IMG/VR virus record: IMGVR_UViG_3300043409_001110
Location: 1-26,868 of that record
Length of the DNA: 26,868 nucleotides
Strand: one strand, 5' to 3'
Origin: a virus
This document shows positions 221 through 20,704 of the stretch, piece by piece; position 1 is the stretch's first letter, and each line of letters begins with the position of its first letter. Both the position numbers and the translations under genes were made by a program. The notes under the pieces were generated by a model, which was given only the letters and a program-made list of their open reading frames with translations, was not told the origin of the DNA and searched no databases.

Positions 221-544
221 TCACTTCCCCTTACTGTCACGAAAATGAGCAATATTTTTGATACTAGAACCAAATAAAGAACCGCCAGACATACCCTTAG
301 CTTTTCTATGAGCGATACGCTGACGCATAACATAATCAGTACCCTGAGGATAATGTACTTTCTTCTCAATATATTTGATCAAAGAATTAGCCTCAACCTT
401 ACGGCCACTACTAAAAATAAAGACATAATAATCCTTACCGTCTTTGTTTACAATTTCCCATCTCATAATGCGACCAAAATCATCAACATTATTGCTTACG
501 CTTAGACCTATCATTTTCTCACATTTATCAGACATATCAGACAT
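221..544 (-). CDS. Hypothetical protein (107 aa)
   Basis: A complete 107-residue frame starts at ATG 544, preceded by AAAGGGAG at good spacing; a second ATG three codons later is possible. The middle of the protein (about residues 24-63) looks like a small alpha/beta fold with alternating hydrophobic strands (YYVFIF) followed by a Lys-rich helix. The C-terminus is basic and contains a Gly/Ser-rich stretch (SGGSLFGSS). There are no cysteine motifs or membrane segments. The gene overlaps the end of the start-less frame 537..770 by eight bases and is followed after two bases by gene 1..218, so the three look like one translation-coupled group. No family recognised; being a gene is well supported, function is not. 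Confidence 0.75.
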   Translation of the reverse strand: MSDMSDKCEKMIGLSVSNNVDDFGRIMRWEIVNKDGKDYYVFIFSSGRKVEANSLIKYIEKKVHYPQGTDYVMRQRIAHRKAKGMSGGSLFGSSIKNIAHFRDSKGK

Positions 545-770
545 TTACTACTCCCTTTCTAGTGTTTAGGCAATTAATAACATTATCTATATATAAACCA
601 ATACGCGCAAATTGACCGACACAAAGGTCGGTCAATTCCTTACACAATTCCTTAGCATTTGTGTTTGATATAACTTCCACAAAGACAACACTATCATAGG
701 GGAAATCGCAAGGATAACCAAACAGATTGTTTGTTTTATTTAAGGGAAATATTCGTAGAAACGCAGGAAA
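537..770 (-). CDS. Probable small coding frame with no canonical start codon (about 77 aa); pseudogene or unusual start
   Basis: After a TAA at 771-773 the minus strand stays open for 77 codons to a TGA at 537-539, overlapping the next gene's ATG by eight bases, the spacing usual in this genome. The frame looks coding: codons show a purine-first bias (GAT AGT GTT GTC ... GAA GTT) and the protein alternates strand and helix (VVFVEVIS, then NAKELCKELTDLC). No ATG, GTG or TTG occurs in its first 30 codons; the first is GTG at 680-678, with no Shine-Dalgarno. Immediately upstream, ATG at 776-774 is followed at once by the TAA. Either it starts at a rare codon (CTG, ATA), or it is a decayed gene, or the chance openness of AT-rich DNA has misled me. 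Function unknown. Confidence 0.45.
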   Translation of the reverse strand, partial: FPAFLRIFPLNKTNNLFGYPCDFPYDSVVFVEVISNTNAKELCKELTDLCVGQFARIGLYIDNVINCLNTRKGVVNV

Positions 771-973
771 TTACATTCTAACGTTAGGAAAGCTATACAT
801 CAAGAATTAAGCTCTAACGTTAGAGCAGCTATACATTACGAATTGGGTTCTAACGTTAGGGGCTTATTAGATTACGAAATAAATCGGTATCAAATATAAA
901 GCTTTACCTAAAGGAACACCACAGAATCCTTATACTAATTTTAATCAAAATTTAGTATATATTCCGGGTCATA
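771..973. other. Non-coding stretch between the GT-A gene and the start-less frame
   Basis: About 200 bases without a supportable gene. It contains the 36-bp repeat array (778-885). At 931-960 there is an AT-rich imperfect inverted repeat with arms TATACTAA and TTAGTATA that extend inward with one bulge, ending 13 bases downstream of the GT-A stop codon on the minus strand. That hairpin has no GC core and no T tract, so it is a poor intrinsic terminator. No tRNA-like cloverleaf was found. Two nine-codon mini-frames (ATG TAT AGC ...) lie within successive repeats on the minus strand. Confidence 0.6.
778..885. repeat. Three tandem 36-bp repeats, each headed by the palindrome CTAACGTTAG
   Basis: The 10-base palindrome CTAACGTTAG occurs at 778-787, 814-823 and 850-859, exactly 36 bases apart each time. 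In the middle copy the palindrome extends to a perfect 16-mer, GCTCTAACGTTAGAGC (811-826). The rest of the unit is also shared: copies 1 and 2 agree at 28 of 36 positions (common part AGCTATACAT), copies 2 and 3 at 23 of 36 (common part ATTACGAA). The array lies in the only long non-coding stretch of the window (771-973). A protein-binding operator array or replication iterons are the natural readings. The period is too short, and the units too uniformly related, for a CRISPR array. Confidence 0.85.
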
Positions 974-1855
974 TTATTTACCCTGACTTTTTTTCGTTTT
1001 CTGAGTTGATTTCGTTTTCTTTTTTTGATTAACTGGATCAACTTTAACATCTAATGTAGCGTTATCAACTATCCAGTCAATAAGCTTACCCTTATACTCA
1101 TAGCGACCCAAATGCGTTAATTCAATAGAAGGATCGACCCAAACTTGGCCGCCAATCTTTTGCCAATACCTACCGAATCCATAATCTTCTGATAAGAATC
1201 TTCCATCCTCATCTACATAGCTATTAAACAAAGCATATGCATTATCTCTTTCTTCACCAACTAAAGTACCAGTATCATCTCTATACTTTAGTTCAGGATA
1301 GGCTTCAAACAACTTTTCAAAAGCAGACCTTTTAATCAACATGAAACCAGTTCCAGCATCATAAATTGAAATAGCACCATTATCAACATTAACTTTATCA
1401 TTAGATGATGAAGCAGCATTAATAACAAATCTTGTACTTTTTTCTGCAATCTTATCTTTTTCACAATCTTTCTTTACAAGATCAATGACTTTATCCCAAA
1501 CAATTTCTTTAATAGGATAAGCCCCTGTCATAATTTCTTTATCGTGCCATAACATCTTTAAAATATCTTCATAGTTATATCCAAGATCAACATCAATGAA
1601 AAGAAGGTGTGTAAAGTTTTTATTAGCCATAAACTTAGCAACAAGTTGATTTCTTGCCCTAGAGATTAATGAATCACTTAACGTGCTAATACCAAATTTC
1701 ATACCTATTTCCTTAAAAGCAACTGCCGACTTTATGGTAGACATAAAAAAAGGTTCAGTCACTTGCCTATCATAACAAGGAAGGCAAATCAATGGATGCC
1801 AAGATTCAATTTCTTCAGATGTAATTTCAATATTGTGAGGTGTAGTTTCAAGCAT
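974..1855 (-). CDS. GT-A fold glycosyltransferase
   Basis: A 293-residue protein with the layout of a nucleotide-sugar dependent GT-A glycosyltransferase. Residues 62-92 carry the family-like stretch ending in FIDVDLGY, where D88-V-D90 is the metal-binding DxD. FLSEDYGFGRYW at 220-231 resembles the acidic acceptor/catalytic region (SED), and H248 is a possible third metal ligand. The last 20 residues are a Lys-rich tail. There is no membrane segment, so it should act in the cytoplasm on a soluble sugar acceptor, virion protein or modified base; the substrate cannot be read. It is isolated from its upstream neighbours by a strong terminator and appears to have its own leaderless promoter (TGATATAAT six bases before the ATG, no Shine-Dalgarno). 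Confidence 0.8.
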   Translation of the reverse strand: MLETTPHNIEITSEEIESWHPLICLPCYDRQVTEPFFMSTIKSAVAFKEIGMKFGISTLSDSLISRARNQLVAKFMANKNFTHLLFIDVDLGYNYEDILKMLWHDKEIMTGAYPIKEIVWDKVIDLVKKDCEKDKIAEKSTRFVINAASSSNDKVNVDNGAISIYDAGTGFMLIKRSAFEKLFEAYPELKYRDDTGTLVGEERDNAYALFNSYVDEDGRFLSEDYGFGRYWQKIGGQVWVDPSIELTHLGRYEYKGKLIDWIVDNATLDVKVDPVNQKKKTKSTQKTKKSQGK

Positions 1856-1861
1856 CCAATA

Positions 1862-1870
1862 ATTATATCA
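1862..1870 (-). promoter_or_regulatory. Extended -10 promoter, predicted leaderless transcript of the GT-A gene
   Basis: On the minus strand TGATATAAT is a perfect extended -10 element (TGnTATAAT). TATAAT ends at 1862 and six bases (TATTGG) separate it from the ATG at 1855, so the expected start site is the A of the ATG itself. No Shine-Dalgarno precedes this gene, unlike most others here. No good -35 is visible, as is common for extended -10 promoters. Leaderless mRNAs are frequent in actinobacteria. Confidence 0.55.
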
Positions 1871-1907
1871 AAAAAAAAGACCTGCGGAGATAAATCCGCA
1901 GGTCTTT
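1870..1907 (-). terminator. Strong rho-independent terminator
   Basis: Perfect 13-bp stem (AAAGACCTGCGGA at 1876-1888 with TCCGCAGGTCTTT at 1895-1907), a six-base loop, and a run of nine Ts on the minus strand. It begins 25 bases after the stop of gene 1932..2285. It should end the terminase-side transcript. Its T tract runs directly into the next gene's -10 element. Confidence 0.93.
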
Positions 1908-1931
1908 AAAAATATTATTTTTTAATTGAAA

Positions 1932-2285
1932 TTACTTAGTGGATACTTTTCCAGCATTCGTTTTGATGGACTTTATCTCAGATGATTTTACACCCGATTC
2001 AATCACATTTGAATTAGTCATTTCATTCTTTGAAGCCTTGAAATACAACTTTTCCTCTTGTGCATCAAAACGAATAACAACTTTGAAATCCATTTTTCTA
2101 GCCTGAGCGCGAATACGCTGTTGCATTGAATTATAAGCTTTTCCTGCTGTAATTCCAGTAAGGGCAAACTTATCATCATTTTCTGCTGAGGCAATCAATG
2201 CCTCAATGATTTGATTTAGTTCATTACTAACACGACCAGAACGAGTAAGTTCGGGGAAAGTATCAACTTTTGCTAGGTTAAACAT
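1932..2285 (-). CDS. Hypothetical protein (117 aa), possible small DNA-binding or virion-associated protein
   Basis: Complete 117-residue frame with AAAAGAGAA before the ATG. The first 70 residues are predicted helical and contain a basic segment (QQRIRAQARKMDFK). Residues 72-88 form an alternating strand pair (KVVIRFDAQEEKLYFKA). The C-terminal 30 residues are Ser/Lys/Asn-rich and probably disordered. There is no recognised domain. The gene has a separate upstream region of about 110 bases and a strong terminator behind it, so it may be a one-gene transcript made in quantity, which would suit an abundant structural or nucleic-acid coating protein. That role is inference only. Confidence 0.7.
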   Translation of the reverse strand: MFNLAKVDTFPELTRSGRVSNELNQIIEALIASAENDDKFALTGITAGKAYNSMQQRIRAQARKMDFKVVIRFDAQEEKLYFKASKNEMTNSNVIESGVKSSEIKSIKTNAGKVSTK

Positions 2286-2334
2286 TCTATTCTCTTTTCT
2301 ATTGGGTATGGGCTAGTTGCCCTTGACAGAAATA

Positions 2335-2343
2335 ACAATAGCA
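2335..2343 (-). promoter_or_regulatory. Weak candidate extended -10 promoter for gene 1932..2285
   Basis: TGCTATTGT on the minus strand matches an extended -10 (TGnTATnnT), about 50 bases before the ATG at 2285, within a 115-base gap. No -35 at proper spacing was found. The leader also holds a small GGGC/GCCC hairpin. Confidence 0.3.
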
Positions 2344-2400
2344 CATCATTTCCAGCAAGGGGCGGAAAAAACAAAAATCTTATTTGTTTCAAAAAAAAGA

Positions 2401-2598
2401 TTAATTCTTGGTCTTATTTGTACTAGATACTTGAGGTTGTGAACTATTAATACTTTCACTCAATTCCTTCACAATTCCTTCAAGCTTTGCGATATACAAT
2501 TTAGCAACACTTAATTCCAAATTGTATGTAGAGACTTGCGAATTAAGAGCGTGAACAAGTTCATTAATATCTATATCAATACCTGATTTATTAGTCAT
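2401..2598 (-). CDS. Small coiled-coil protein downstream of terminase
   Basis: A 65-residue protein when started at the ATG at 2598, which overlaps the terminase stop codon as ATGA, the commonest junction in this genome. A start five codons earlier (2613) is also open, but its purine stretch touches the ATG. Residues 9-50 are a continuous amphipathic helix with hydrophobic residues at heptad spacing (ELVHALNSQVSTYNLELSV, then KLYIAKLEGIVKELS), so a coiled coil is likely. The C-terminus is Ser/Thr/Asn/Lys-rich and probably disordered. Translation is likely coupled to the large terminase, which suggests a packaging or prohead partner; this is not shown by sequence similarity. Confidence 0.65.
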   Translation of the reverse strand: MTNKSGIDIDINELVHALNSQVSTYNLELSVAKLYIAKLEGIVKELSESINSSQPQVSSTNKTKN

Positions 2599-4337
2599 AT
2601 TGTTTCTATCCATCTTTCATTAGAGGAGTAATCAATTGATGATGAATTGTCACCACTAACGAATTCTCCTAGATTTTTATTATACACCTTCACAGTACCT
2701 TTATCTGGGGTATCTTCATCATATTCCCACATTTTATCAGGCGTTAATATTTCTATTTCTATTTCCGCATCGTAAGCCATATGTTGCATACAATTGAATG
2801 CAGCCCCGGCTAAAGCGTCTGCTAAGTCTTTTGAACCACTATTAGGGTGATCAATCTTGTTATTATTAAACAATCTCAATTTAAGCAATTCCTCTTCAAC
2901 AAGAAGTTCATTCCAATAACCACGCAATCTAGTATCATAAATTGTTGTCATAAGAGTGTCATAATCAGACTTTTTAACCGAATGGAAATCGGCATTAATA
3001 TTCTGTGATCTTAACGATTGAATCATCTCAACAGATTGCCAACGGTCAAACGTAACTAGACCTACATTGAATTTCCTACATAGATCAACAATCATTTGCC
3101 TAATAGAAGAGAAATTGATTTCTGCACCTGATGACGCTTCCCAAGAGTGAACTAAATCCACATTAACTACTGGTAAGTGTTCTGTACCAATAGATGTTTT
3201 TACTTCTTTAAATCCAGCCGAATGAACCATACATAAAGCGGCCCTGTCTCTTTTCAAACCTAAGTCAATATGAATAAACCTGGTATAGCCATCTGTACTA
3301 TTAAACCAAGGCTTAAATGAGCCATCTTCTTCATCAATAGGATCTTCACCATAGTTAAATGCTTTTCTTACTAGATCAGCATCCCTAAAGTATGCGTCTT
3401 CCATATTAGGCGGTTCGCATTCAAATCTCGCCCTTGCTTCAATTGGATTTCTAATAAATTCTGATTCCAAATCGCTTCTTTTAATTGTTGGGTTAACTTC
3501 CCATGTTGCAGCTTTAATAAACCAAGTTTTAGGTTCTTTACTCTTTTCAGCACCATAATATCTTTGTTGAATAAAGTCACCTTTATATCTAGGGAATGAC
3601 AATAAAATAACTTTACCGACTTCAGGAAATCTAGACATAACAGATAACTTGCTCATATTATAAATTGCTGACGCAGATCCTTTAGATCTAGTTTCTCCAC
3701 GTAATTCGGAATCAGTTTTAAATGCTGAGATTTCGTCAAGAATTACGCTTAACACTTCGTAACCTTCCCAACCTTCACTTTCAGAGTGACCAGAGAAACA
3801 TCTAACAGGTCTAGAAAAGAAAAAGATTTCAGAAACTCTTGGCTCAAACCCTACCTCATTAAAGAACGGAGATGACAACATTAAGTTTTTTAAAGGCTCA
3901 AAAAAAACTCTTTGAGCTTGCTGTGCGTTAACAGCCAGGTTAAGTAGGTCAATATAAACACCATTAGCTTTACCATAATAGCCAAGAGGATCTCTTAAGC
4001 AATGAAGAATATATGCCGTATACGCAATAGAAATTCTTGCACAATGGTCTTTACCTGATCCTTTACCCAACATACAGATAACTTCATTATCCGTATACTT
4101 TATATACCACTCTTCACCTTCTTTTTCGCCCATCAATTTTTGCAGCGTATGCTTCTTCAAAATTTGTGTAGAATGACGTACAATTTCCAATTGAATAGGA
4201 GATAATGGTGGAAGACCAAGATATTTTTTATCTTGAACAAATACCTCAATTGATACTGGTTCTGTGCTAAGTTCTTCTTGTCTTAACAGTCTATCAAAGT
4301 CTTTGAATTCCAAATTCATACCTAGAAAATCTGACAT
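2595..4337 (-). CDS. terL: Terminase large subunit (ATPase and nuclease)
   Basis: A 580-residue packaging motor subunit with both expected domains. In the N-terminal ATPase, GKGSGKD at 91-97 is the Walker A loop and VILDE at 198-202 is Walker B with the catalytic Glu. In the C-terminal RNase H-like nuclease, D358 (HIDLG), D431 (TFDRW) and the D504/D507 region (KDLADALAG) supply the metal-binding acids. Length is normal for the family. It translocates DNA into the prohead and cuts the concatemer. The start is firm: AAAGGTGG precedes the ATG at 4337. It follows the candidate small subunit after a 100-base gap holding only a short GCTTCA/TGAAGC inverted repeat. No truncation or missing residue is seen. 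Confidence 0.95.
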   Translation of the reverse strand: MSDFLGMNLEFKDFDRLLRQEELSTEPVSIEVFVQDKKYLGLPPLSPIQLEIVRHSTQILKKHTLQKLMGEKEGEEWYIKYTDNEVICMLGKGSGKDHCARISIAYTAYILHCLRDPLGYYGKANGVYIDLLNLAVNAQQAQRVFFEPLKNLMLSSPFFNEVGFEPRVSEIFFFSRPVRCFSGHSESEGWEGYEVLSVILDEISAFKTDSELRGETRSKGSASAIYNMSKLSVMSRFPEVGKVILLSFPRYKGDFIQQRYYGAEKSKEPKTWFIKAATWEVNPTIKRSDLESEFIRNPIEARARFECEPPNMEDAYFRDADLVRKAFNYGEDPIDEEDGSFKPWFNSTDGYTRFIHIDLGLKRDRAALCMVHSAGFKEVKTSIGTEHLPVVNVDLVHSWEASSGAEINFSSIRQMIVDLCRKFNVGLVTFDRWQSVEMIQSLRSQNINADFHSVKKSDYDTLMTTIYDTRLRGYWNELLVEEELLKLRLFNNNKIDHPNSGSKDLADALAGAAFNCMQHMAYDAEIEIEILTPDKMWEYDEDTPDKGTVKVYNKNLGEFVSGDNSSSIDYSSNERWIETI

Positions 4338-4437
4338 ATTAAACCACCTTTAGGAGAATACACTTTTCCCCACCTTTATTAGAGCTTCATTTTGAAGCCT
4401 ATTCAAATGTTTTTTGAGATATTCAATATAAATAATT

Positions 4438-5052
4438 TTATTCCTCAATTACTTCTACATCATAAATATCTGGAGCAACATAAGTTTCTGGATCAGAAGC
4501 AGCAGCAACATCGCCGTTCATTATCTCAAAAGCCAAAGATAATTCACTTCTAACTTGCTCAGCAACATCGGGATATTGTGAAATAACATCTCTCAAGATT
4601 TTTGATAAAATTTGGTTGACACTCTCTGCCTTTTGCATCCGGGCAATATAGTCACTATCAGTAGAATTAGTGCCAGTCATCAACTTATGCAAGTTGGCTT
4701 TTTTGACAGCAATATCAGCAGCCAATTTCAAAGCCTGAATTCTTACAGCGACCATTCCATGATCAGTTGCGATTGAAACAGTCTCCCACGCCTCTTTGCT
4801 TAATTGATCAAATTCTTGTAAAGATTTGATCGTATTAAATTGAATTTTTTCTAGGAAATACGGGTCAGAATCTGCTTGCCTATGCAAGATGTTTTTGTAT
4901 TGCTCAACATACTCTTTCGCCTTATGAGTAGTAACACTCAGCAAAGAACCAATTTCATTATATGAATAGCCTTTGATATGTAAAACACCAGCATCTTCAA
5001 TATCCTTCAGCTCTGCTACAATATCTTTACCGACTTTTTCTATTTCAGACAT
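4438..5052 (-). CDS. terS: Probable terminase small subunit
   Basis: A 204-residue protein immediately before the large terminase. Residues 27-52 look like a helix-turn-helix (GYSYNEIGSLLSVTTHKAK), the DNA-recognition unit of many small terminases. The middle (about 68-120) is a long helical hairpin-like region, as in the oligomerisation domain, and the C-terminus is acidic, where contact with the large subunit usually lies. The order HTH, helical oligomer, acidic tail and the position directly upstream of terL make the small subunit the best reading, though the sequence itself is too diverged for me to be certain. The ATG overlaps the stop of the glycosyltransferase gene by eight bases with no clear Shine-Dalgarno, so translation is probably coupled. 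Confidence 0.65.
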   Translation of the reverse strand: MSEIEKVGKDIVAELKDIEDAGVLHIKGYSYNEIGSLLSVTTHKAKEYVEQYKNILHRQADSDPYFLEKIQFNTIKSLQEFDQLSKEAWETVSIATDHGMVAVRIQALKLAADIAVKKANLHKLMTGTNSTDSDYIARMQKAESVNQILSKILRDVISQYPDVAEQVRSELSLAFEIMNGDVAAASDPETYVAPDIYDVEVIEE

Positions 5053-6094
5053 CTTGTATCTTTAAAATCCTTTCTCTATAGCCAGAGACCACAGATTCCC
5101 ATGAATAATTATCTCTTAAGAAGATAGATGAATCCATAGTTTTATTCAAAACTTCATCATAGTTATTAACTACATACATCATTTTATCACATAAATCGTC
5201 AATTTTTGGGTCAGCCCACTCACCATTACAATAAATGCCATGCTGATTTGTATTCGTCATAGACGCTTCCAATGGCACTGAGAGGTACGCAAACTCCTTG
5301 CAGGCTGTTTCATTAGTGCAAATGGTAGGAACACCGCAGGCTATTGCTTGAAAAGGCGACATACCCCAACCTTCGCCCCTAGTCGGATATAAAAAGCAAT
5401 TAGTGGAATTAATTAATTCTGCCAATTCTGACTCTTCTAGGTAGTGATCTATAATTTGAATTTGCTCAATATCATAAAGAGAGCGACGGCTAGTGTCATC
5501 CAGTATATAACGGGCATCAGGGGGGCCATTGCTTTTAAGTATTAATTTATATTTATCATTACCTAAAAATAATCTAAAAAATGCGTCAACTACAAGTTGA
5601 GTATTTTTTCTAGTGGAGGGGCTACCGATATGCAAGAATTTAAATGCTTCATCGTGCTTCATTTTTTTAGGATAAAAAGTGTGAACATCAACACCTAAAT
5701 TAAAAGCATAAATAGGAACTTCAACACCACTGTCAATAAAACATTGTTTAGCCCAAGACGATGTAGTCCACACCTCATCACACTTATTCATACTAACAAC
5801 CCAATCAGCAGGCAGTCTTGTTGTTTCCCAATAAGTAAAACCTACAATGTAATCACCATCATAACTGTAATCACATGGCAAGCAATTGTTAATAAGGATA
5901 TTAGGAGATTTCGGTTCCAAAATGAATCTAATACCATGATACTTATCCACACATACGCTTTTAACATTACTATCAAAAGAACAAATATCCTCAAGACCTA
6001 AGACTTGTATGTCTTTCAATCTTGAGGATATATTGTCAGATGCATAGGTGTAACCGTCAGCTAGATTGCTCGCTAATTTTCTCCAGTAAATCAT
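5045..6094 (-). CDS. GT4-type (GT-B fold) glycosyltransferase
   Basis: A 349-residue protein when started at ATG 6094; an ATG 15 codons upstream adds an unlikely hydrophobic leader. The C-terminal Rossmann half has the GT4 donor-binding signature: GSPSTRKN near 157-164 and PTRGEGWGMSPFQAIACGVP at about 237-256. The first acid of the E-x7-E motif is E241, but the second position is Gln (Q249). The N-terminal half begins near WRKLASNLADGY, a start typical of phage GT4 proteins. It should transfer a sugar from a nucleotide donor, acceptor unknown. It overlaps the upstream 42-residue gene by 38 bases and the terminase small subunit gene by eight. A second glycosyltransferase (974..1855) lies past the terminase. 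Confidence 0.85.
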   Translation of the reverse strand: MIYWRKLASNLADGYTYASDNISSRLKDIQVLGLEDICSFDSNVKSVCVDKYHGIRFILEPKSPNILINNCLPCDYSYDGDYIVGFTYWETTRLPADWVVSMNKCDEVWTTSSWAKQCFIDSGVEVPIYAFNLGVDVHTFYPKKMKHDEAFKFLHIGSPSTRKNTQLVVDAFFRLFLGNDKYKLILKSNGPPDARYILDDTSRRSLYDIEQIQIIDHYLEESELAELINSTNCFLYPTRGEGWGMSPFQAIACGVPTICTNETACKEFAYLSVPLEASMTNTNQHGIYCNGEWADPKIDDLCDKMMYVVNNYDEVLNKTMDSSIFLRDNYSWESVVSGYRERILKIQDV

Positions 6095-6185
6095 CTTTAT
6101 TTTCAACAACCTTATATAGTTTAATAGAACCAAAATCATAAATTAAAATATCTGATTCTTCCACTTTTTCAATCTCTATTGACAT
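6057..6185 (-). CDS. Small acidic protein (42 aa)
   Basis: A 42-codon frame with an excellent ribosome binding site (AAAGGGGG four bases before the ATG at 6185). It encodes an acidic peptide starting MSIEIEKVEE, with a short strand pair (DILIYDFGSIKLYKVV) and a helical tail (NKDDLLEKIS). It ends inside the glycosyltransferase gene, overlapping it by 38 bases in another frame; the glycosyltransferase start has only a poor binding site, so this peptide may serve partly to load ribosomes for it. There is no known family. Its strong binding site and frame placement support it as real despite its size. Confidence 0.65.
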   Translation of the reverse strand: MSIEIEKVEESDILIYDFGSIKLYKVVENKDDLLEKISEQSS

Positions 6186-6220
6186 TATACCCCCTTTCTC
6201 AAATAATATTGTTACAAAAA

Positions 6221-6976
6221 CTATTTATCAATGGAAAAAGCAATAGGTATTTTAGATTCTTTTGACTCCTTCTTTAAAACATCCAAAGGATATCCATGAT
6301 TTTTAGTGAATTCAACTCTGTAGTTAAACCAGCCTATAATACCATTCCAAAACTTGTCATCGGTATTATCTCTTAACTCTATCAACTCTTCATCAGTAAG
6401 TAAGAAACTAAGAACACCTAAAGGCATGTACACCGTCAGATTGTAATTTTGATCCTTTTCAGAAGCATACTGTTTCAATAGTTTCTGATAATCTTCAACA
6501 ATCCTTTTTACGGCTCCACCACCATAGTGGTCAAGAGAACCATTTTCGTTTCTAATCCTTGGGCAGTAATCATCAACATTAGTTATAGTACCAAAAGATC
6601 TACAAACCAACGGCCTAAACCCATAGACAGTACAACCACCTTTATAGAAAGCACAATGTCTTTCAGTTTCACCACCAGGCTTATACGTCTCATCATACAT
6701 TGCACCTTTTAAAGACTCTATGACAGACATAATCCACGTATCTGCATCATCTTCACCAGAGCTTTCCATTTTCAAGTAGTACTCTTGGCGAATATGGAAA
6801 GCAATGTTGGCACATTCCATCATTGGAATTGTTAAACCAATTCTGCAACAACCACCAGAGCCAAGACATTTTGATTCAGTAGCATTCTGTTTCGCTTCTA
6901 AAACTCTGATCTGATTATAAATCATATCCAAGTGAGCAAAAGTTGTAATATCTTGAACTGTCACATTTCTTCTCAT
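6221..6976 (-). CDS. YkgJ-type cysteine cluster protein (putative zinc/iron-binding)
   Basis: A 251-residue protein with the YkgJ/CxxCxxCC-like arrangement: C37, C43 and C44 in CLGSGGCC, then C108, C115 and C125 in the hallmark region GCTVYGFRPLVCRSFG (114-129), and C138. Such cysteines are thought to bind zinc or an iron-sulfur cluster, and the family's reaction is not established. The C-terminal 110 residues are helical and not part of the core domain; the protein is longer than many YkgJ members. The ATG overlaps the stop of the HTH gene as ATGA. Phage copies may act on proteins, RNA or the metal pool of the host; nothing here decides. Confidence 0.75.
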   Translation of the reverse strand: MRRNVTVQDITTFAHLDMIYNQIRVLEAKQNATESKCLGSGGCCRIGLTIPMMECANIAFHIRQEYYLKMESSGEDDADTWIMSVIESLKGAMYDETYKPGGETERHCAFYKGGCTVYGFRPLVCRSFGTITNVDDYCPRIRNENGSLDHYGGGAVKRIVEDYQKLLKQYASEKDQNYNLTVYMPLGVLSFLLTDEELIELRDNTDDKFWNGIIGWFNYRVEFTKNHGYPLDVLKKESKESKIPIAFSIDK

Positions 6977-7269
6977 CGTAATTTACCTTTCTTTTTTAAA
7001 GCATTAGCTTTTTGCATTTCTCTTCTTTTCCTTTCAACTAACTCTTGCATAGGAGACTTAGGTCGACGGTTAGACGTACTCTTAAGATTACGACCTTTTC
7101 CTCTATACTTAAGTAAATCATATTTCTTAACCCAGTTATATAACGCTTGAGGGCTTAATTCAATATTATAATTTTTTTGTAATAACTTACAAATGTCCGT
7201 CAAGTTCATACGCCTTTTAACGTACATCTCATATAAAAATTGTTTATCCTTATAAGGTTCTAAAGCCAT
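6973..7269 (-). CDS. Small helix-turn-helix DNA-binding protein
   Basis: A 98-residue protein from ATG 7269, which has GGGG about nine bases upstream; a longer frame from 7317 would only read back into the RuvC-like gene. Residues 21-51 form a helix-turn-helix: MNLTDICKLLQ, then SPQALYNWVKKYDLL, resembling the N-terminal HTH of transposases and small phage regulators. The C-terminal half is very basic (RGKGRNLK, RKRREMQKANALKKKGK) and would add non-specific DNA or RNA contacts. It overlaps the RuvC-like gene by 20 bases and the YkgJ-type gene by four. It could be a regulator or a DNA-targeting partner for the nucleases next to it. Confidence 0.65.
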   Translation of the reverse strand: MALEPYKDKQFLYEMYVKRRMNLTDICKLLQKNYNIELSPQALYNWVKKYDLLKYRGKGRNLKSTSNRRPKSPMQELVERKRREMQKANALKKKGKLR

Positions 7270-7840
7270 TAGACACCCCATACCACAAACCAATGCCAAT
7301 TGCATCAGTAATATCACTATCTACAACAGTTGTATCAAAATCTGGAAATACATTATTCAATATAGTCCTAACACGCTGCTTTCTTTCTTCTGATAGTCTT
7401 TTCTGAATCCCCTTCTCACCGTGTTTTTCTTTTAATTCCTTAGTATCTTTTTTTGTAAGATTCTTGTAACCTATTCCAGACTTCCATTTCAAAGGGTTTA
7501 CATCTTGAACTATTTTACAATAGTCATCCAACTCACCCCAAGTAAAACCAATTATATAGGATAGAATACGACTAGCTTGGAAATTTTGTATAAAAATAGA
7601 TTGTTCAATAACTGCAACATCAGGCTTATATTTATTGCATATGACAGGCATTTCTTTTTTAATTTTAGAAAACTTATTAGATATTTCCGGGATAAGTGCG
7701 TAATCAATTTTACCGCAATCAACTATGGTGATGCCATGTTTGTTCATGTCAAGAACAGCCCATGCAAGTGAATGAGATGCTGGGTCTAAGGCTATAACAC
7801 GGCACGACTTCATTGCTGAAAGGACTGAAGAAACGGTCAT
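7250..7840 (-). CDS. RuvC-like resolvase (RNase H fold nuclease)
   Basis: A 196-residue protein with the RuvC-type acidic set: D19 in the first strand (VIALDPASHSLAWAVLD), E79 in VAVIEQ, and a C-terminal acid cluster D174/D176/D179 in VVDSDITDAIGIGLW. Length is close to bacterial RuvC (about 170-190). It should cut branched DNA such as Holliday junctions or packaging intermediates with two metal ions. An insertion rich in Lys and Glu (about 125-158) lies before the last acids. It forms ATGA overlaps with the zinc-finger gene upstream, and with the RecA-like, Cas4-like and PD-(D/E)XK-like genes nearby it makes a recombination block. Confidence 0.8.
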   Translation of the reverse strand: MTVSSVLSAMKSCRVIALDPASHSLAWAVLDMNKHGITIVDCGKIDYALIPEISNKFSKIKKEMPVICNKYKPDVAVIEQSIFIQNFQASRILSYIIGFTWGELDDYCKIVQDVNPLKWKSGIGYKNLTKKDTKELKEKHGEKGIQKRLSEERKQRVRTILNNVFPDFDTTVVDSDITDAIGIGLWYGVSNGFRTL

Positions 7841-8169
7841 AACATTTCTTTCCTGATTTTTTCTTCATCCCAACCCCAAGATACAAGTCTTGCAATATAC
7901 CTTTCAGTTTTACACCTTTCGCATATTTTTTCTTTATTGTATCTTGACAAGATTGTTGAACAATTCTCAGTAACACAAGTTCTTTTTTTAGTCTTATTTG
8001 ACTTGTCAGTATAGTATTTCTCTAATAATTTTCTATTAGTAACTGTTTTTCTACACTCTGATGAGCAGTAAATACCATTGTAAGTCCTAGGAATAAAACT
8101 TATTGGGCAACCATCGTTTGCACAAAAAATTTCTTTAAAAAGGCTCGCTTTCTTCTTTTTTGGTTCCAT
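7837..8169 (-). CDS. Double zinc-finger protein (110 aa)
   Basis: A 110-residue basic protein with two cysteine quartets: C16, C21, C35, C39 and C65, C70, C83, C86. The two have a similar form, a CxxxxC knuckle, about a dozen residues, then CxxxC or CxxC, so they look like repeated zinc fingers joined by a Lys-rich linker (44-64). The C-terminus is a short helix with aromatic residues (SWGWDEEKIRKEML). It lies between the Cas4-like and RuvC-like nuclease genes, overlapping both, and probably binds nucleic acid or one of those enzymes. No specific family recognised. Confidence 0.7.
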   Translation of the reverse strand: MEPKKKKASLFKEIFCANDGCPISFIPRTYNGIYCSSECRKTVTNRKLLEKYYTDKSNKTKKRTCVTENCSTILSRYNKEKICERCKTERYIARLVSWGWDEEKIRKEML

Positions 8170-8902
8170 TTACACCCGACCAGCATTGAGAATACAAATC
8201 ACATGAACCACAATTTTTAGATGTAATTTTATATGGTTGATCAGGTATTGTATCATCTGTGAAGTTTTTATAAAACTTCCTATATTTTGTAAACAACTTA
8301 TCAATAAAAGCATCATCTCTGTCAATAAGTATTGGCAGTATTTGTTGATTATTTTTATTTTCATAAATAACAAAAGCTTGTGGTAAATCTAGGCAGCGCA
8401 TATAGATTTGTGCTTGCCTAATATGATCATCTTTCGGCTTATTATAAATTCTTCTATATTCAAAACCCTCCATTGAGATTGATTTTATCTCAATAAGTTT
8501 TTTGCCATAGAAGTCAATTATACCATCAGCAGTGCCCTCAATAGGCGGATCATCATGAGTTACTGGGATTTCTTCTGCAACAAGAATACCCATATGATCT
8601 AAGTAACTATAAATACGTTCATGAACTTTATGTCCATTGTCAAAAATACGATAAGTCTGAGGATTAAACGTAGTTTCAACTTCTGCACCATTAAACAGGT
8701 AGTACCAGTATCTTGCACATTGGTTTGTGTAACTAGGATGAAACCCGCCAACTTTCTTGATTTTCTTTTCATTTCTATCAAGAAATGATGCATCAATCTT
8801 TTCAACTAACTCTTGTTCAAGATCAGTAGATGTTTTTTCTACATTATCCGCCCTAGGAGTTGGTTCTTCTTTTGGTGCTTTTAAGGCCTTAAGTGCTTTC
8901 AT
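8135..8902 (-). CDS. Cas4/RecB-like PD-(D/E)XK exonuclease with predicted 4Fe-4S cluster
   Basis: A 255-residue nuclease. C62 (NQCARYWYY) and C231, C234, C240 (CGSCDLYSQC) match the split cysteine set that holds a 4Fe-4S cluster in Cas4 and AddB-type nucleases. The catalytic core runs H91/H94 (GHKVHE), D126 (GTADG), E138-x-K140 (LIEIKSIS) and the helix with Q163/Q165 (HIRQAQIYM). Such enzymes resect DNA ends. The first 50 residues are charged and variable. No CRISPR genes lie nearby, so this is a phage Cas4-like protein of recombination or replication. It overlaps the zinc-finger gene by 35 bases and shares one base with the upstream gene. Confidence 0.85.
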   Translation of the reverse strand: MKALKALKAPKEEPTPRADNVEKTSTDLEQELVEKIDASFLDRNEKKIKKVGGFHPSYTNQCARYWYYLFNGAEVETTFNPQTYRIFDNGHKVHERIYSYLDHMGILVAEEIPVTHDDPPIEGTADGIIDFYGKKLIEIKSISMEGFEYRRIYNKPKDDHIRQAQIYMRCLDLPQAFVIYENKNNQQILPILIDRDDAFIDKLFTKYRKFYKNFTDDTIPDQPYKITSKNCGSCDLYSQCWSGVNGTKKEESEPF

Positions 8903-9219
8903 CAGTTATTTCCTTTTCCAATTATTTTAAGCACGTTGATGTTTTCAACCAATGCCTCATACATAGTTTTCCAAATATCATTGACAAACTTATCCTGCTC
9001 ACCCATCATGCTTGATTTTCTCTTATAAACTTGAGATTTAACAATCATCAATGTTCTATAACCAGCAAGAATATTTGCATACTTCAAAGCCTGCGCTCCA
9101 ACGTAAAAGTCTGGATTTTCAATAATATCCTGTACAATTCTCATACATTCTAAAAACTCTTGTGCTTTATCACCCATCTGTGCAGCAAGCCAGTCTGGGT
9201 TAACAATTATATCTGTCAT
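8902..9219 (-). CDS. Hypothetical helical protein (105 aa) preceding the Cas4-like gene
   Basis: A complete frame with a strong binding site (AAGGAG five bases before the ATG at 9219). The protein is predicted almost wholly helical, with a central amphipathic section (ECMRIVQDIIENPDFYVGAQ) followed by a basic stretch (KSQVYKRKSS) and a final helix pair. It has one cysteine and no metal motif. Its stop codon shares a base with the start of the Cas4-like exonuclease (TGATG), so the two should be made together; it may be that enzyme's partner or simply a co-transcribed gene. No family recognised. Confidence 0.7.
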   Translation of the reverse strand: MTDIIVNPDWLAAQMGDKAQEFLECMRIVQDIIENPDFYVGAQALKYANILAGYRTLMIVKSQVYKRKSSMMGEQDKFVNDIWKTMYEALVENINVLKIIGKGNN

Positions 9220-9244
9220 AATACTCCTTTATATAGTATCACTA

Positions 9245-10702
9245 TTAGTAACAATATTTCTTTAATTCATTAGCAATCCACTCAACAACTGGCACAGCAA
9301 CAGCGTTACCAATCATTTTATAACGATTAGTATTGCTAATCTCTTTACCACTATCGGCAAATCTTGTATGGTCATCGGGGAATCCCATCAATCGCTCACA
9401 TTCAACAGGCGTAAGCCTTCTTAGAATCAATTCTGGTGTGCATACAGCATGCATTGATACAGTATCTAAAGTATATGAAGGGTCATTTGGTTCACCAAAA
9501 CCTTTCCCTGCTGGTCCAGCAGAGTCTGAGCGACCAATGATCGTGCCCTGAATAGGGATAGCAGTCGCTTGCTCAGCAATTAAAGGAACTTGATTACCAC
9601 CAGTTCCCATCCTGCTCATCAATGTAGGAACAATACCATCATCATAGACACGAATATCATTAACTCTTGTACCATCAACAATTAAAACAGTTGAGCGTGA
9701 TTCACTATTGTTGTCAAAAGCATTCAAAGTAGGACTAACATCTTCTTGTCGCCAAACTTCTGGTGGTAAATTACCATCAGCATCTCTCGCGCCAGAACGA
9801 ATCACCTTGACAAAAGATTCAACAGAGTGCATCACAAAGTTCTCATCTGGTCTCTTATGACTAGTAGCCCTAAATGTTGAACCACCTTCTTGGTAATTAC
9901 CAAAACCAGTTTTGCCATACAGAACAGGTTGTGCTACAGAATTCCCACCACTTTCAACACGCATTGTTGGAAACACTTCTTCTGATGCTTGTGGATCTAT
10001 TCCGTTTTTGTGATTGAATCCGTATGTTGGTCCGCTAACTTTATCAGAGCCTGATAGAGCATGGGTGGAAGCTTGTTTCCTCTTCTTTCGGCTCTTCTTA
10101 AGATTCCCGTCGCTGTCTTGGGGGACAGGTAGTATTTGTGTTCCACATCTTCCAACGATTGTAGGACAGAAACTAACAACAAGGAACAATCTTCTCCTTC
10201 TGTGTGGGACTCCAAACCATTGTGCATCCAAGATGTGCCATTCAATTGCCAATGCCCCGATGTTAGCCATTTCGTCAATGACTGCTGAGAAGTCTTCTCC
10301 TTTATTACTTGTGAGGGCACCTGGCACATTTTCCCAGATTGCAATTTTTGGGTATTCATTTCCTGTTGCATTTCTCATCTCCTTGATGATCCTAGTTGCT
10401 TCATAAAACATTGATGATCTTTCACCATCAAGACCAGCACGCTTTCCAGCAACTGACAAGTCCTGACATGGTGAACCAAACGTAATTAAATTGACAGGCT
10501 TAATTTTTGCACCATCAACATCTTGAATATTATAATATTTATCAGTATTAGGCCAATGATTGTTTAAAACAGATTGACATGTTTTATCCCACTCAACCTG
10601 CCAACTGCTTTCCCAGCCAGCATTTGTAAAACCAAGATCAAAACCGCCGATCCCAGCAAATAAACTTCCAAATGTTAATTCCATTTCAAATCCAATCGTC
10701 AT
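9245..10702 (-). CDS. dcm: C5-cytosine DNA methyltransferase (Dcm type)
   Basis: A 485-residue enzyme carrying the C5-methyltransferase motifs in order: I, FAGIGGFDLGF (15-25); IV, GSPCQ with catalytic C79; VI, ENV (124-126); VIII, QWFGVPHRRRR (161-171); IX, TPVECERLMGFP (431-442); X, YKMIGNAVAVP (461-471). It methylates cytosine in a specific duplex sequence. Between VIII and IX lies an insert of about 260 residues with at least four degenerate units of the form (V/S/F)PT(L/M)...G(N)..VP(L/V)I, much larger than the usual target-recognition domain. No restriction partner gene is adjacent, so it is an orphan, probably protecting phage DNA. A start at ATG 10684, one base after the small membrane gene's stop, is equally likely. 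Confidence 0.93.
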   Translation of the reverse strand: MTIGFEMELTFGSLFAGIGGFDLGFTNAGWESSWQVEWDKTCQSVLNNHWPNTDKYYNIQDVDGAKIKPVNLITFGSPCQDLSVAGKRAGLDGERSSMFYEATRIIKEMRNATGNEYPKIAIWENVPGALTSNKGEDFSAVIDEMANIGALAIEWHILDAQWFGVPHRRRRLFLVVSFCPTIVGRCGTQILPVPQDSDGNLKKSRKKRKQASTHALSGSDKVSGPTYGFNHKNGIDPQASEEVFPTMRVESGGNSVAQPVLYGKTGFGNYQEGGSTFRATSHKRPDENFVMHSVESFVKVIRSGARDADGNLPPEVWRQEDVSPTLNAFDNNSESRSTVLIVDGTRVNDIRVYDDGIVPTLMSRMGTGGNQVPLIAEQATAIPIQGTIIGRSDSAGPAGKGFGEPNDPSYTLDTVSMHAVCTPELILRRLTPVECERLMGFPDDHTRFADSGKEISNTNRYKMIGNAVAVPVVEWIANELKKYCY

Positions 10703-20276: not shown

Positions 20277-20704
20277 AATTTGTTAACCTTTTCTCGTAAA
20301 GAAACGATGCTGTTTCTTATGTTGTTGTTTTTAACGTTAGCAGGTCTTCCAGACTTCCTGCCAGAAAAGAATGCTACCACATCATAAACATCGGATTCGG
20401 TATAGAACCGCCAATTTTTATATGCTTCACTTTGCTCGGCTTCCGATATCGGTCTGGTAAGAAGCCCATTCTTTTCATATTTTCTGATTGTATCAGATCT
20501 TTTACTAGTAATTTTAGATAACTCACCAATAGTGTACAAACGACTTAAAAGTAATTCACCACCATTGAATGGGATAATTTCTTCATTCTCTTCTAATAGG
20601 AATTTTACAATCACACTATTAGAAGAGCGATGAATCTTTTTTACTTTCACAATAAGCTTTTTGTATAAATAAAACTTATTTTCTATGATTTTATTTGTTA
20701 TCAT
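20273..20704 (-). CDS. MerR-type winged-helix DNA-binding protein with an extra N-terminal domain
   Basis: A 143-residue protein. Residues 57-112 form a MerR-like winged helix: LYTIGELSKITSKRSDTIRK, then the wing after EKNGLLTRP and RFYTESDVYDVVAFF. GRPANV (119-124) follows, then a basic helical tail. About 55 residues ahead of the HTH form a strand-rich domain (LIVKVKKIH, NSVIVKFLLEENEEIIPFNG), which usual MerR proteins lack, since their HTH is at the very N-terminus. There is no C-terminal effector cysteine cluster and no long dimer coiled coil, so it may be an excisionase-like or phage-specific regulator. It sits in the first half of the unit started at the 22291 promoter. Confidence 0.75.
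   Translation of the reverse strand: MITNKIIENKFYLYKKLIVKVKKIHRSSNSVIVKFLLEENEEIIPFNGGELLLSRLYTIGELSKITSKRSDTIRKYEKNGLLTRPISEAEQSEAYKNWRFYTESDVYDVVAFFSGRKSGRPANVKNNNIRNSIVSLREKVNKL

What the first reader, a model, noticed from the sequence alone, without database searches (positions are those of the whole stretch)
776..885. Exact 36-bp tandem array of palindromic sites in the main non-coding gap
CTAACGTTAG recurs three times with exactly 36 bases between copies, the middle one a perfect 16-base palindrome, with partial conservation of the rest of each unit. Palindromes at fixed spacing suggest a dimeric protein binding several times, as an operator array or as replication iterons. The window's HTH, MerR-type and WhiB-like proteins are candidate binders. 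I know of no described element with this unit.
Basis: seen in the sequence. Interest (0 to 1): 0.62.

Follow-up and report, generated by a model that had tools for sequence, protein, structure and literature searches.

The report
Clade-specific palindromic control sites in phages
Three copies of a short palindrome sit in front of a large gene block in this uncultured phage; in its relatives the same short "address" marks only that spot and the start of nearly every gene in a small-gene region, and each phage group uses its own spelling, which points to a phage-made switch protein that co-ordinates the genome.

Summary
The repeat is real: CTAACGTTAG at 778, 814 and 850 (36 bp start to start, 26 bases between), the middle one inside a perfect 16-bp palindrome. 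Dinucleotide shuffles of the whole window give 0.02 copies. The palindromes are ancestral: they are nearly the only invariant columns in the same gap of nine relatives. The exact 36-bp period is private to this phage (relatives: 16/27, 17/17, 20/27, 25).

In longer relatives the same site is a genome-wide code. In G001 (90.9 kb), all 32 exact copies in an 8.6-kb region of small genes are intergenic. The only three near-matches in the other 82 kb are in the gap homologous to the window's. A matrix trained on the small-gene region alone ranked this gap first outside that region in four genomes and second in a fifth; it failed in one.

Related phages keep both locations but spell the site differently: GTAATATTAC, CTAACCTAAC, probably TTAACGTTAA and TTRARTAYAYATT.

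Best explanation: binding sites of a phage-encoded regulator, upstream of the promoter of a 20-kb leftward gene block and of each small gene's promoter. Activation or repression is unshown. The binder is unknown; a small paralogous protein family is the best candidate. Nearest analogues are stoperators and ESAS; membership in either fails.

The parts
778..787 (.). palindromic site 3 (nearest the promoter), CTAACGTTAG
   Evidence: aligned and invariant in relatives
814..823 (.). palindromic site 2, CTAACGTTAG, core of a 16-bp perfect palindrome at 811-826
850..859 (.). palindromic site 1, CTAACGTTAG
   Evidence: aligned in relatives
769..876 (.). three 36-bp tandem units; the 36-bp period arises from insertions private to this phage
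716..721 (-). putative -35 hexamer TTGGTT (17-bp spacer to the -10)
   Evidence: consensus match only; kept in the closest relatives
693..698 (-). putative -10 hexamer TATGAT, 79 nt from site 3; 78-80 nt in most close relatives, 91 in G001 and L041
   Evidence: prediction, no transcript data
607..638 (-). hairpin in the presumed 5' leader of ORF 221-544
   Evidence: RNA fold -20.5 kcal/mol, z -4.2; kept in close relatives
948..963 (-). AATATATACTAAATTT element just after the 974-1855 stop codon, recurring in gaps of relatives of several site classes
974..1855 (-). upstream flanking gene, weakly glycosyltransferase-like (phrog_1574, unknown function; weak phrog_34859)
   Evidence: synteny marker in 68 viral loci
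221..544 (-). first gene downstream of the array (107 aa, unknown), start of a leftward gene block of about 20 kb in relatives

Best explanation
The array is a set of binding sites for a sequence-specific regulator encoded by the phage. It lies just upstream of the promoter that drives a leftward block of about 20 kb of mostly small genes. The same site is repeated several times (about four to ten) upstream of the promoter of each small gene in an 8-kb region about 20 kb away. Binding at both places would let one protein co-ordinate the separately transcribed small genes with the leftward block. Shown here: the site, its conservation, its restriction to these two places, and its replacement by another spelling at both places together in related phages. 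Inferred: that a protein binds it, that the protein is phage-encoded, and that the effect is on transcription. I lean to activation (about 55:45 over repression or insulation), because sites lie upstream of, not over, the predicted -35/-10.
For: (1) TAACGTTAGA columns are invariant or nearly so in 10 homologous gaps whose mean column identity is 59%. (2) G001: 32 of 32 exact sites in the dense region are intergenic although genes fill half of it; the only sites with at most 1 mismatch in the other 82 kb are the three in the homologous gap. (3) Blind test: a matrix trained only on the dense region ranks this gap top outside it in G003, G007, G020 and, once leftover dense-region sites are set aside, G001; second in G008. 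(4) Site spelling changes between phages at both places together: GTAATATTAC class in G007, G020, G008; CTAACCTAAC in G022 (20 copies, 3 in this gap, 17 in 62.2-66.8 kb); TTRARTAYAYATT in G009 (13 dense, 1 in this gap, 1 elsewhere). (5) Dense-region cassettes have a fixed order: terminator, sites, hairpin, sites, promoter, ATG. (6) Site-to--10 distance is 78-80 or 91 nt in the window's clade and 42-43 or 53-54 nt in six of nine G001 cassettes.
Against: No binding, transcript or deletion data exist. The binder is not identified. Promoters are consensus matches; three of nine cassette promoters are uncertain. In the GTAATATTAC and CTAACCTAAC classes the distance from the last site to the promoter-like motif is longer and variable (142-278 nt), so no rigid promoter geometry is shared. 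The blind test failed in G006 and ranked second in G008. The window itself is a 26.9-kb fragment without the dense region, so the genome-wide part is shown only in relatives. Several of the genomes compared are close to each other (G002/G003, G006/G008).
Confidence: 0.72

Rival explanations
1. Repressor or roadblock sites (stoperator-like): a phage protein bound at the sites stops transcription running from the upstream gene into the next unit, or silences these genes later in infection.
For: Sites lie between the end of one gene and the promoter of the next, both in the gap and in the cassettes. Many sites per genome and clade-specific spelling are also found in L5-type stoperators (PMC6550527).
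Against: Most classes are palindromic, not asymmetric and oriented. All exact G001 dense-region sites are intergenic. No integrase, resolvase or CI-like HTH_3 match in 12 records, though several are fragments. Cassettes already have intrinsic-terminator-like hairpins.
Confidence: 0.3
2. Replication origin or partition (centromere-like) site: the palindromes are iterons or parS-like sites.
For: Tandem repeats in the largest non-coding gap; many clustered sites in one genome region.
Against: Sites recur before many separate genes with a fixed promoter-oriented order. GC skew does not switch at the gap in the window or in G001. No Rep or ParAB family was seen among the proteins scanned, but ParA/ParB models were not searched as such.
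Confidence: 0.08
3. The sites are bound by a host protein (a host regulon operator captured by the phage).
For: Not excluded by any test here; hosts are unknown.
Against: Site spelling differs between related phages with a conserved gene order and changes at both locations together; a host protein would require a matching host change each time.
Confidence: 0.1
4. RNA elements: the palindromes act as hairpins in the transcript (terminator, attenuator or processing signal).
For: The middle site can form a 6-bp hairpin; the 107-nt array strand folds better than shuffles (z -3.4).
Against: The hairpin of the middle unit alone is not exceptional (z -1.1). Sites lie upstream of the predicted promoter. 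The CTAACCTAAC class is not palindromic yet has the same distribution.
Confidence: 0.05

Closest known systems
Stoperators of cluster A mycobacteriophages (L5/Bxb1 immunity repressor sites)
   Same: 20-30 short sites per genome, similar sequence within a genome, with consensus that shifts between related phages (PMC6550527)
   Different: Stoperators are asymmetric, oriented with transcription, mostly not promoter-associated and belong to a temperate phage's immunity system. Here most classes are palindromes, sites are intergenic and upstream of predicted promoters, they fall in two places only, and no lysogeny gene was found.
SAS/ESAS repeats of cluster K mycobacteriophages (TM4, Anaya, Pixie)
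   Same: Inverted repeats in front of many small genes, with a consensus that differs between subclusters (PMC3203893)
   Different: ESAS are 17-bp imperfect inverted repeats tied to a start-codon element (SAS) with a suggested role near translation starts. Here the core is a 10-bp palindrome repeated several times, 59 bp or more upstream of the ATG and upstream of predicted promoters, plus one remote locus before a 20-kb block.
Stanwilliamsviridae (Streptomyces phage Annadreamy)
   Same: Nearest cultured relatives by terminase (42% identity) with a similar gene order
   Different: No comparable palindrome arrays found in the 112 kb examined.

Membership tests
Stoperators (L5-type) | asymmetric site, oriented with transcription | tested here: not met
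   CTAACGTTAG, TTAACGTTAA and GTAATATTAC are palindromes; CTAACCTAAC is asymmetric but occurs on both strands
Stoperators (L5-type) | temperate phage with immunity repressor and integration or partition genes | tested here: inconclusive
   no PF00589, PF00239 or PF01381 match in 12 records, several of them fragments; L5-type repressor family not searched
Stoperators (L5-type) | many sites per genome with group-specific consensus | tested here: met
Stoperators (L5-type) | bound repressor blocks transcription elongation | not testable with these tools
   needs binding and transcription assays
ESAS (cluster K) | 17-bp inverted repeats next to a start-associated sequence at the start codon | tested here: not met
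   in G001 the sites lie 59 bp or more upstream of the ATG and upstream of predicted promoters; the SAS sequence itself was not searched
ESAS (cluster K) | repeats precede many small genes, consensus differs between subclusters | tested here: met
   definition from PMC3203893
Replication iterons | direct repeats at one origin next to an initiator gene | tested here: not met
   sites precede many genes at two distant places; no skew switch at the gap
Operator array of a regulator | repeated conserved site upstream of a promoter, shared by a set of genes | tested here: met
   (promoters predicted only)
Operator array of a regulator | a protein binds the site and changes transcription | not testable with these tools
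   needs gel shift and transcript data

The most novel reading that the evidence does not exclude
The site is read by the small 'RGR' paralogues encoded in the site-dense region itself (FVKRGRKS...IRTAC...W.P.G.PQ; no Pfam, PHROG or confident PDB match). They would be a new kind of sequence-specific phage regulator whose DNA code is rewritten from lineage to lineage, at two genome locations at once, in phages without any sign of lysogeny, perhaps giving each lineage private control of its genes during co-infection.
Probability: 0.3. Interest if true: 0.8.

Novelty: new variant of a known kind. Interest (0 to 1): 0.62.

Why it matters
If the sites are read by one phage protein, related phages have rewritten a whole regulon's DNA address several times (three spellings well supported, two more likely) while keeping its layout. 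That is a natural experiment on how a regulator and dozens of sites change specificity together, in uncultured phages. It also gives a simple computational handle (find the repeated site, find the gap) for locating the control regions of phages nobody has grown.

Tried and rejected
Direct DNA search of the gap in cultured phages gave only short chance matches. The exact 10-mer pair occurs in about 20 further viral stretches without homologous genes, some operator-like, so the 10-mer alone is not diagnostic. Rfam had no match in the window. The site with one mismatch at 20331, inside the MerR-type gene, is within chance (0.55 expected). MerR, HTH and WhiB alignments across site classes: the recognition helices of MerR and HTH do not change with the site. 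Pfam scans of 20 leftward-block proteins found another WhiB but no obvious dimeric HTH regulator. The RGR family was folded (pLDDT 82): no significant Foldseek match in PDB, one close uncultured-phage relative and weak DUF7609 hits among viral models, VIA-align best Z 5.5, uninformative; no match in cultured phages by tblastn. Burkholderia phage AH2, looked at because of the weak DUF7609 link, has no such arrays. Helical phasing of site-to-promoter distance is suggestive but not established (resultant 0.65-0.71 at 10.5 bp, similar at 11-12) and is not claimed. Terminase search in GTDB genomes gave two hits in MAGs of an archaeon and a Flavobacteriales bacterium, probably mis-binned, so the host stays open; WhiB genes suggest an actinobacterium. 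Literature search for the 10-mer found only unrelated papers.

Full report
Observation. CTAACGTTAG is present exactly three times in the window, at 778, 814 and 850, 36 bp start to start with 26 bases between. The middle copy is the core of the window's longest perfect palindrome, GCTCTAACGTTAGAGC at 811-826. The gap 545-973 is the largest non-coding stretch; all main genes run leftward. No copy appeared in 1000 dinucleotide shuffles of the gap, and the mean was 0.02 for shuffles of the whole window.

Conservation. A pattern scan of viral contigs found 32 stretches with two copies close together. Seven of them carry homologues of the two genes flanking the gap, with the sites in the same gap. 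Using the upstream gene (974-1855) as a query gave 68 loci. In ten aligned gaps of the nearest clade the TAACGTTAGA columns are invariant or nearly so while mean column identity is 59%. Spacing is not kept: 16/27, 17/28, 20/27, 17/17 or 25 bp. The alignment shows two insertions between sites in the window, so the regular 36-bp period is local to this phage.

A genome-wide code. The window is a 26.9-kb fragment. Longer relatives show what it lacks. G001 (90.9 kb) has 33 exact copies: 32 in the first 8.6 kb and one in the gap. All 32 are intergenic, though genes fill half of that region; with one mismatch allowed, the only sites in the other 82 kb are the three in the gap. In the dense region most small genes are preceded by a cassette of fixed order: a terminator-like hairpin of the previous gene, a site, a long hairpin often holding two sites, further sites, an AT-rich stretch, a sigma-70-like promoter and the ATG. 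G002 and G003 also combine a dense region with sites in the gap about 21 kb away.

Different spellings, same places. G007 has no CTAACGTTAG but 22 GTAATATTAC, all in 82.4-90.4 kb. A matrix trained only on the dense region was then used to scan the rest of each genome. The gap gave the best hits in G003, G007 and G020 and, leaving aside dense-region sites just outside the trained span, in G001; second best in G008; none in the top seven in G006. In G021 the best hits are at the contig end, about where the gap should lie, but the marker gene is missing there, so this is not counted. G022 uses CTAACCTAAC: 20 copies over both strands, three in the gap and 17 in 62.2-66.8 kb. G009 uses TTRARTAYAYATT: 13 in the dense region, one in the gap, one elsewhere; with a single gap copy this class is the weakest. 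TTAACGTTAA fills a dense region (L151) and TTAACGTTAA-like sites fill the gaps of G019 and L065, but in different contigs.

Promoter. Downstream of the array the sequence TTGGTT-N17-TATGAT is kept in the closest relatives, and the -10 is 78-80 nt from the last site in most of the clade, 91 nt in G001 and L041. In other site classes a similar promoter-like motif is farther away. These are consensus matches, not mapped starts. A stable hairpin follows in the presumed leader.

Binder. The MerR-type and HTH proteins keep their recognition helices across phages with different sites, so they are poor candidates. The dense regions encode two or three paralogues of a small basic protein with an RGR motif. 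Of ten loci found with this family, nine carry dense palindromes of one class each, and the tenth carries CTAACCTAAC. The predicted fold matches nothing informative. Residues in its long helix differ between classes, but the classes are also clades, so this is not evidence of specificity. I rate RGR as the binder at about one in three.

Mechanism. The simplest account is a phage-encoded regulator that reads one site at the small-gene promoters and at the promoter of the leftward block. Activation is slightly favoured because sites sit upstream of the predicted promoters; repression, roadblocking or insulation remain open. No integrase, resolvase or CI-like HTH was found in 12 records, which argues against, but with fragments cannot exclude, a lysogeny repressor. 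Origin and partition readings are disfavoured by the distribution and by unbroken GC skew at the gap.

Comparison with known systems was made last. Stoperators (PMC6550527) and ESAS (PMC3203893) share the principle of many repeated sites with group-specific consensus. Each fails at least one defining feature here. The result is filed as a new variant of a known kind.

Noticed in passing
L104 (G001) 1800-8500 and L113 (G007) 2300-10500: Many small-gene cassettes hold a long hairpin whose stem sequence differs between cassettes and phages (for example GCCGGTGTT...AACACCGGC, GCGGGTGT...ACACCCG). Its role is unknown.
   Followed up: partly
window 607-638: Stable hairpin in the presumed leader of ORF 221-544 (z -4.2); a more distant relative (L045) has a different hairpin-forming sequence at the corresponding place.
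   Followed up: partly
window 948-963: AATATATACTAAATTT directly after the upstream gene's stop codon recurs in the gaps of relatives of several site classes, and resembles the repeated site of G009.
   Followed up: partly
L104:6192-6467, 7306-7599, 7921-8211 and homologues: A small 'RGR' protein family without a confident Pfam, PHROG or NCBIfam match, in two to three copies in every site-dense region seen.
   Followed up: yes
L158, L159: Terminase relatives (75% identity) in MAGs labelled archaeon and Flavobacteriales, probably mis-binned phage contigs.
   Followed up: no
L154 (Burkholderia phage AH2): GACAC-N9-GTGTC occurs five times in the first 15 kb, in two cases seen overlapping a promoter-like sequence; looks like a separate operator set.
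   Followed up: no
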